Assembly: GCA_016190985.1 (NCBI GenBank)
Contig: JACPPI010000029.1
Location: 18,269-82,268, forward strand
DNA from: Opitutia bacterium
Lineage (GTDB): Bacteria > Verrucomicrobiota > Verrucomicrobiia > Opitutales > Opitutaceae
Direction of reading: 5' to 3'
Length of the DNA stretch: 64,000 bases
The notes beneath the pieces were generated by a model. The model saw only the letters and a program-made list of their open reading frames with translations, was not told the DNA's origin and did no database searches. The translations under genes and the position numbers were made by a program. Shown here one piece after another: positions 12,264-13,951 of the stretch (the stretch's first letter is position 1; each line of letters opens with the position of its first letter).

Positions 12264-13295
12264 ATGATTCGCTCACCAGAAAAACTCCGCGCACCGCGCA
12301 ACCGCACGCTGACGCTCTCAGCGACGGACTGCGCGCGACTGGGCCAGGCCCTGGTGCGGCCGCCGCTGGCAGGAAATCTGGAGGCTTTGTTGGATCGTAT
12401 TATCCTTGGAGACATGACGGCCTTGTTGCCGCGGATGCCGAAGGGATGGGCCGACTTGGTTGTGGTCGATCCGCCCTACAATCTGACCAAGCAGTTCGGC
12501 GAGGCCAAGTTTGCCCGCAAGGAGGCCGGAGAATACGAGGCCTGGGTCGAGAGTTGGCTGCCAGCGGCAATCGCCACCCTCAAGCCCACCGGCAGTCTCT
12601 ACGCCTGCTGCGATTGGAAGTGCTCCATGGCTTATCAACGGGTGCTGGAGCGGCATCTCGTGGTGCGCAACCGCATCACTTGGGAACGGGAAAAGGGCCG
12701 TGGGGCCAATGCGAATTGGAAAAATGCCAGCGAGGACATCTGGTTTTGCACCGCCTCGGACGATTACTTCTTCGATGTCAATGCGGTCAAATTGAAGCGG
12801 CGGGTTATTGCACCTTACCGGGAGGGTGGAGCGCCCAAAGACTGGCAGGAAACGGCCGAAGGGGATTTTCGACTAACCCATCCCTCCAATCTCTGGACTG
12901 ATATGACAGTGCCGTTTTGGTCAATGGCGGAGAACACCGACCACCCCACACAAAAACCCGAGAAACTTATCGCCAAACTCATTCTCGCCAGCACCCGTCC
13001 CGGCGCGGTGGTGCTTGACCCCTTTTTGGGTTCGGGCACGACGGCCGCCGTCGCGGGCAAGCTCGGCCGGCATTTCGTGGGCATCGAAATTGACGAGGGC
13101 TACGCTTGCCTGGCCGCCCGGAGGGTCGAGCTGGCCGGTTCCAACAAGGAAATCCAAGGTTATGCGGGTGGGGTTTTTTGGGAGCGCAATTCTCTGCAAG
13201 CCCAGCCCAAGAAATCGACGGACGCTGATTCTGGTGCGATGGAATTGATTCCGGAATTTGAATTGGGTGAGCCCGAAGGAGACTATCACCCATGA
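12264..13295 (+). CDS. Site-specific DNA methyltransferase, amino-methyltransferase, beta-type motif order (DPPY before FxGxG)
   Basis: ADLVVVDPPYNLTKQF; DHPTQKPEKL; VVLDPFLGSGTTAAVAGKLGRHFVGIEID. Confidence 0.93.
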   Translation: MIRSPEKLRAPRNRTLTLSATDCARLGQALVRPPLAGNLEALLDRIILGDMTALLPRMPKGWADLVVVDPPYNLTKQFGEAKFARKEAGEYEAWVESWLPAAIATLKPTGSLYACCDWKCSMAYQRVLERHLVVRNRITWEREKGRGANANWKNASEDIWFCTASDDYFFDVNAVKLKRRVIAPYREGGAPKDWQETAEGDFRLTHPSNLWTDMTVPFWSMAENTDHPTQKPEKLIAKLILASTRPGAVVLDPFLGSGTTAAVAGKLGRHFVGIEIDEGYACLAARRVELAGSNKEIQGYAGGVFWERNSLQAQPKKSTDADSGAMELIPEFELGEPEGDYHP

Positions 13296-13951
13296 AATCG
13301 GCCGTTTTTTCCGGGAACACCGCCCGCAACATCGAGAGCAAAGTGAAAAAGCTGCTGAATGAGCGGGCGGATATTCTGTCGCCAGCCACGGCCGACAGCA
13401 CGCGCGCGGCCGGAGATGCGATGCAGGGAATCCTCGAAGAAAACTTCCGGGAAATCCTTGGCGACCTGGCCGGAAAATACTCGGATAACTTTGCCCGGCG
13501 GGCGATGGCCGACCTGGCTTTCGAGGACAAAGCCGGAAACTATTATGTCGTGGACGTGAAGACCCACCGCGAAGACACCGCCTTCAATATGCCCAACCTC
13601 ACGTCGGTTGACCGGCTGGCCAGATTCTATGAGGACGATGCCAACTATTTTGTCATCCTTATGGTCAAATATGCGGTCAAAGGAACAGGAGTGGCGGTGA
13701 GTCAGGCTCACTTTCTGCCCATTGAGCACTTGAAATGGAGCTGTCTCACGATTGGCGCTTTGGGCAAGGGCCAGATACAGATCGCGAATGCCAAGCATCT
13801 GGAATTCGATACAACAGCCAGTCGCAAGTCGTGGATGCTGGAATTCTGCGACATCATGCTGGATTTTTATCCCCGCGAAGTTCGCAAGATCGGCCTTCGC
13901 ATCGCGCAGTTCGAGAAAGCAAAAACTTTCTGGCTCGCCAAGAAGAAATGA
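13292..13951 (+). CDS. Putative type II restriction endonuclease (PD-(D/E)XK-like)
   Basis: ATGA overlap with methyltransferase; MADLAFEDKAGNYYVVDVKTHRED resembles D-x(n)-(D/E)VK catalytic core. Confidence 0.75.
   Translation: MKSAVFSGNTARNIESKVKKLLNERADILSPATADSTRAAGDAMQGILEENFREILGDLAGKYSDNFARRAMADLAFEDKAGNYYVVDVKTHREDTAFNMPNLTSVDRLARFYEDDANYFVILMVKYAVKGTGVAVSQAHFLPIEHLKWSCLTIGALGKGQIQIANAKHLEFDTTASRKSWMLEFCDIMLDFYPREVRKIGLRIAQFEKAKTFWLAKKK

What the first reader, a model, noticed from the sequence alone, without database searches (positions are those of the whole stretch)
12264..13951. Type II restriction-modification pair built into the complex I (nuo) operon between nuoI and nuoJ
The methyltransferase starts 9 nt after the nuoI stop, overlaps the putative endonuclease by ATGA, and nuoJ starts 21 nt after the endonuclease stop. 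All are on the same strand and there is no room for an independent promoter or terminator at the junctions. Base composition looks lower in GC than the flanking nuo genes. Coupling a toxic R-M pair to an important respiratory operon could stabilise the R-M (loss would break nuo expression) and tie its dosage to respiration. The sequence facts are direct; the functional idea is inference.
Basis: partly seen in the sequence, partly recalled or inferred. Interest (0 to 1): 0.82.

Follow-up and report, generated by a model that had tools for sequence, protein, structure and literature searches.

The report
Restriction-modification pair inside complex I operon
A foreign DNA-cutting enzyme and its protective partner have slipped, almost without a scar, between two genes of a bacterium's respiratory-chain operon, and relatives of the same pair sit in the same way behind quite different host genes in other bacteria, apparently living off the host's own transcription.

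Summary
Between nuoI (11715-12254) and nuoJ (13973-14491) lie a beta-type N6-adenine methyltransferase gene (12264-13295) and a 219-aa gene (13292-13951), 9 nt behind nuoI, overlapping by ATGA, 21 nt before nuoJ. The 219-aa protein has no Pfam match, but its model (pLDDT 90) matches HincII, R.SwaI and EcoRV, and D74/D88/K90 are invariant across 34 relatives: a real Type II restriction endonuclease fold. GC and codon usage mark both genes as foreign. All 19 other genus members with a readable junction lack the pair; several keep the bare TGA-GCC-ATG join. The family is rare and patchy in Verrucomicrobiota, Acidobacteria and Planctomycetes MAGs. Two relatives sit likewise: 1 nt behind an hpnH-like gene and 2 nt before its operon partner (empty in relatives), and 3 nt behind an OPT transporter gene. 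I read it as a horizontally acquired, probably promoterless R-M passenger transcribed by nuo. The idea that nuo coupling stabilises it is untested, and this genome carries a second nuo locus. R-M pairs inside core operons are known (Neisseria pheS-pheT), so this is a new, unusually clean member of a known kind.

The parts
11715..12254 (+). nuoI, upstream host gene
   Evidence: TIGR01971 E 1.4e-37, 127.9 bits against cut-off 113; 85-94% identical in genus members
12258..13972 (+). segment inserted relative to the TGA-GCC-ATG junction of siblings (about 1715 bp, no clear target-site duplication)
   Evidence: junction comparison with 19 genus members
12264..13295 (+). DNA N6-adenine methyltransferase, beta-type motif order (DPPY before FLGSGTT), 343 aa
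   Evidence: PF01555 E 8.1e-41; PADLOC MTase_II E 3.7e-59; PDB 8urk E 8.9e-42; 8000 homologues scored
13292..13951 (+). Type II restriction endonuclease, PD-(D/E)XK, HincII/SwaI/EcoRV group, 219 aa; D74, D88, K90
   Evidence: 3918 homologues; AF2 pLDDT 89.7; Foldseek HincII 1tw8 E 1.2e-7, R.SwaI 5tgx TM 0.75; PADLOC REase_II PDLC03492 E 7e-4; invariant residues
13973..14491 (+). nuoJ, downstream host gene
   Evidence: PF00499 E 6.2e-31

Best explanation
A complete, probably active Type II R-M pair (beta-type m6A methyltransferase plus a HincII/HpaI/SwaI-fold endonuclease) was acquired horizontally by this Opitutaceae-like lineage and landed, without disrupting a gene, in the stop-start junction between nuoI and nuoJ. 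It most likely has no promoter of its own and is expressed as a passenger on the nuo mRNA: the methyltransferase is translated first, just behind the nuoI stop, and the endonuclease second, through the ATGA overlap, so that protection precedes restriction. Shown: gene content, fold, catalytic residues, foreign composition, junction without the pair in relatives, tight spacing. Inferred: activity, target sequence, co-transcription, translational coupling, mode of insertion (homologous recombination of a cassette between conserved flanks, or illegitimate insertion tolerated only at such junctions).
For: Coordinates and spacing. MTase family and motifs. RE fold HincII/R.SwaI/EcoRV; D74/D88/K90 invariant in 34 sequences and in a more distant 259-284-aa family. 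Foreign codon usage. RE in only 1 of 21 genus members and, apart from one distant hit, 1 of 252 family members; 5 of 394 sampled phylum genomes. The pair is absent from the junction in all 19 other genus members with nuoI and nuoJ on one contig; ten of these have 3-6 nt there. Same family nested elsewhere: L091, 1 nt behind an hpnH-like radical-SAM gene and 2 nt before a B12 radical-SAM gene, genes that lie about 16-53 nt apart in most relatives where both were seen; L002, 3 nt behind an OPT transporter gene and 46 nt before an NHL-repeat gene. Close MTase and RE homologues in independent assemblies have matching contig lengths (9018, 2222, 3286, 2956).
Against: No transcript, methylation or cleavage data. 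A promoter inside nuoI or inside the MTase gene cannot be excluded; the consensus scan is uninformative in this phylum. Not every family copy sits tightly behind a host gene (L003, L067, L069, L070 do not).
Confidence: 0.7

Rival explanations
1. The pair sits in the operon by chance but is transcribed on its own, from a promoter hidden in the 3' part of nuoI, or from one inside the MTase gene for the endonuclease; the operon position has no role.
For: Four of eleven examined family copies (L003, L067, L069, L070) are not tucked behind a host gene and must be expressed otherwise.
Against: Only 9 nt before the MTase and none before the RE; no promoter-like site found, though the scan has little power; MTase start codons lie 1-11 nt behind the stop codon of a gene, gene fragment or leader ORF in seven of the eleven other copies.
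Confidence: 0.2
2. The nuo position is selected: losing the pair by the usual sloppy deletions would harm nuo expression, and respiration sets R-M dosage. This would be an addition to the best explanation, not an alternative to it.
For: Same family nested in a second core operon (hpnH-like) and behind an OPT gene.
Against: Junctions without the pair work in all siblings; a second, divergent nuo locus exists in this genome; only one genome carries the pair here, so persistence cannot be judged.
Confidence: 0.1
3. The pair is decaying, or has turned into a solitary methyltransferase with a dead endonuclease.
For: Some family copies are broken: MTase frameshifted in L067, RE frameshifted in L068, a stop in L082.
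Against: Here both frames are intact and all catalytic residues are present.
Confidence: 0.1
4. The arrangement is an assembly chimera.
For: MAG-like assembly of 34 contigs; no second genome with the same junction.
Against: The pair lies deep in an 82-kb contig with normal nuo genes on both sides, precisely between stop and start; completeness 99.5%, contamination 0.24%; chimeras rarely join at codon borders.
Confidence: 0.03

Closest known systems
Minimal mobile elements, e.g. NmeDI R-M between pheS and pheT in Neisseria (Saunders & Snyder 2002 as cited in PMC3082526 and PMC3898611; PMC7973814)
   Same: A Type II R-M system as a whole-gene cassette between two conserved core genes, variably present
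   Different: Different R-M family and operon (nuo); only one occupied genome known, and no exchange of different gene cassettes at the junction was seen; stop-start spacing of 9 and 21 nt with an ATGA-coupled pair
HincII / HpaI / R.SwaI endonucleases
   Same: PD-(D/E)XK fold, D..DxK; with the 259-284-aa family of L076/L077 also R..MAD, N.T and ALGxGQIQ motifs
   Different: About 12-20% identical to HincII and R.SwaI by structure, no match by sequence; shorter than HincII; target unknown
M.BceJIV-type beta adenine methyltransferase (PDB 8urk; the name is from memory, the record says only 'Methyltransferase')
   Same: Best solved relative, E 9e-42; DPPY, FLGSGTT
   Different: From memory that enzyme is an orphan with target GTWWAC; here it is paired with an endonuclease, and the target is unknown
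R-M insertion with long target duplication (Nobusato et al. 2000, cited in PMC3874152)
   Same: A relative (L090) lies between two thiC fragments
   Different: At nuoI-nuoJ no duplication of nuo sequence is seen

Membership tests
Type II restriction-modification system | adjacent genes for a DNA methyltransferase and a separate endonuclease | tested here: met
Type II restriction-modification system | PD-(D/E)XK active site intact | tested here: met
   D74, D88, K90 invariant; fold match
Type II restriction-modification system | both enzymes act on the same DNA motif | not testable with these tools
   needs methylome and cleavage data
HincII/HpaI/SwaI endonuclease group | same fold | tested here: met
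   HincII E 1.2e-7, probability 1.00; R.SwaI TM 0.75
HincII/HpaI/SwaI endonuclease group | detectable sequence homology | tested here: inconclusive
HincII/HpaI/SwaI endonuclease group | cuts a GTNNAC-like or AT-rich palindrome to blunt ends | not testable with these tools
   no avoidance signal readable in 64 kb
Minimal mobile element | cassette between two conserved genes, absent in relatives | tested here: met
Minimal mobile element | different gene cassettes at the same place in different strains | tested here: not met
   siblings hold 3-6 nt or 57-180-nt spacers, many of them palindromic, and no other genes
Minimal mobile element | spread by homologous recombination in the flanks | not testable with these tools
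   only one occupied genome

The most novel reading that the evidence does not exclude
This R-M family is an 'operon parasite': a promoterless, translation-coupled two-gene unit that repeatedly settles, on the coding strand and within a few bases, in stop-start junctions of unrelated host operons (nuo, hpnH-like, OPT, thiC) across phyla and takes its expression from them.
Probability: 0.3. Interest if true: 0.7.

Novelty: new member of a known kind. Interest (0 to 1): 0.48.

Why it matters
It gives a clean case, with the junction lacking the pair in all readable siblings, of an R-M pair that seems to use a respiratory operon as its promoter, plus a second such case from the same family in another operon. 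That makes it testable whether toxic gene pairs without promoters or mobility genes persist by hitch-hiking in core operons, and how an endonuclease is kept behind its methylase when both depend on host transcription.

Tried and rejected
Pfam and NCBIfam on the RE: nothing above cut-off. PDB by sequence and profile: nothing. Phage, plasmid and viral collections for the RE: nothing, so no sign of a phage or plasmid vehicle. Contig-length matching of RE and nuoJ homologues to find other nuo-linked copies: no match. Target prediction from avoidance of palindromes in the window: too few counts. RNA structure at the RE-nuoJ junction: weaker than shuffles. Target-site duplication: none convincing. 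Two R-M mobility papers known to me (PMC2853133, PMC55917) are not held. Relatives of the OPT gene of L002 could not be searched, so that junction has no empty-site control.

Full report
What is there. The order is nuoI (11715-12254), 9 nt, methyltransferase (12264-13295), 4-nt overlap ATGA, endonuclease (13292-13951), 21 nt, nuoJ (13973-14491), all on the + strand inside a nuoD-nuoN run. GC falls to 59% and 54%, GC3 to 0.69 (nuo genes 0.90-0.97), and codon adaptation to the nuo genes to 0.33-0.39 (nuo 0.68-0.84). Chance does not give two intact, well-conserved genes with this fit.

The methyltransferase. PF01555 at E 8e-41, PADLOC MTase_II at 4e-59. DPPY comes before FLGSGTT, the order of the beta group; DPPY is usual for N6-adenine enzymes (established knowledge). 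The nearest solved structure is 8urk, which I remember as M.BceJIV, GTWWAC; that is a lead, not a test. A 61%-identical methyltransferase in a family member (G040, L010/L078) is followed by a quite different 386-aa endonuclease, so this methyltransferase type has changed partners.

The endonuclease. No Pfam or NCBIfam model matches above its cut-off, but 3918 homologues exist, nearly all unnamed. In 34 aligned relatives D74, D88 and K90 never vary. AlphaFold2 gives pLDDT 89.7, and Foldseek ranks HincII (E 1.2e-7, probability 1.00), R.SwaI (TM 0.75) and then EcoRV. A more distant family of 259-284 aa, also next to a methyltransferase (L076, L077), shares MAD, VDVK, N.T and ALGxGQIQ and is the PADLOC family PDLC03492.

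Where it came from. All 21 genus members were searched for nuoJ. In the 19 others where nuoI and nuoJ share a contig, no R-M genes lie between them. Ten have 3-6 nt there (TGA GCC ATG is the commonest form), one has 57 nt, and eight have 108-180 nt, mostly imperfect palindromes of several unrelated kinds. The RE is in no other genus member, and only a distant relative turns up in the 252 family genomes; 5 of 394 phylum genomes, 6 of 390 class genomes and 10 of 294 genomes of the order of G810 have a match, this genome or distant relatives included. It is absent from the phage, plasmid and viral collections searched. So it is best read as a recent horizontal arrival. The inserted segment is about 12258-13972; no clear target-site duplication is seen.

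Other copies. I read eleven further copies. L091 (G1080): MTase ATG 1 nt behind the stop of an hpnH-like radical-SAM/DUF3463 gene, next gene (B12 radical SAM) 2 nt behind the RE stop; in relatives these two genes mostly lie about 16-53 nt apart, or are separated by other inserts of 132-884 nt. L002 (Acidobacteria MAG): MTase 3 nt behind an OPT gene, RE 46 nt before an NHL-repeat gene. L090 and L087: MTase 11 nt behind a thiC-like 3' end, in L090 a fragment that looks frameshifted, with another thiC fragment downstream of the RE (for L087 the thiC likeness is by eye, Pfam gave nothing). L068, L088, L089: MTase 1 nt behind a small conserved leader ORF. L003, L067, L069, L070: not tightly behind a host gene. 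So settling behind a stop codon is frequent but not universal, and only L091 besides the window has an empty-site control. The sample was not random and no formal test was made.

How it probably works. Transcription from nuo, MTase first, RE by ATGA coupling; protection builds up before cutting. Spacing and fold are shown; expression is inferred. The consensus promoter scan found nothing, but in this phylum that carries little weight.

Known or new. R-M pairs between core operon genes are known: NmeDI lies between pheS and pheT in Neisseria (PMC7973814), and such whole-gene cassettes are called minimal mobile elements (PMC3082526, PMC3898611). pheS/pheT also lie near the Pseudomonas core defence hotspot cDHS1 (PMC10250203). 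One MME feature, different gene cassettes at the same junction, was tested and not met, so I do not file it as an MME; it may spread like one. What is new is the nuo location, the endonuclease family, and the second operon insertion of the same family with an empty-site control.

On stabilisation. Siblings without the pair have intact junctions, and this genome holds a second, divergent nuo locus with at least H-, J- and K-like genes.

Noticed in passing
window 6034-6175, 8353-8459, 11573-11714, 14440-14591, 14922-15035, 16935-17059: Six junctions of the nuo operon (D-E, F-G, H-I, J-K, K-L, L-M) each hold a different imperfect palindrome that would fold into a strong hairpin (the L-M one by eye). 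Siblings carry such elements, of other kinds, in the nuoI-nuoJ junction. Operon junctions look like landing sites for palindromic repeats in this genus.
   Followed up: partly
L093, L102, L103, L109, L116 (hpnH-like junction): In relatives of G1080 the junction that holds the R-M pair there holds other inserts of 266-884 nt, some starting like small antitoxin or toxin genes (by eye).
   Followed up: partly
L078 (G040): A 61%-identical methyltransferase followed by an unrelated 386-aa endonuclease (PADLOC PDLC03461, E 1e-149): partner exchange.
   Followed up: partly
L090 (G1169): The R-M pair lies between two thiC fragments in rearranged order (ThiC profile 391-419 upstream, 302-344 downstream), possibly long target duplication.
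   Followed up: partly
window 10149-10375 and 6671-6993: The nuoG-nuoH gap (227 nt) holds a small ORF (MTTQDYLILASGFMTLL...) that looks like a membrane protein; the nuoE-nuoF gap (323 nt) holds another (MKKHRILSVPPIRFGIV...). Neither was searched.
   Followed up: no
G000:C34:9514-9996 (L117): Second, divergent nuoJ-like gene in this genome, with nuoH- and nuoK-like neighbours; most genus members have the same.
   Followed up: partly
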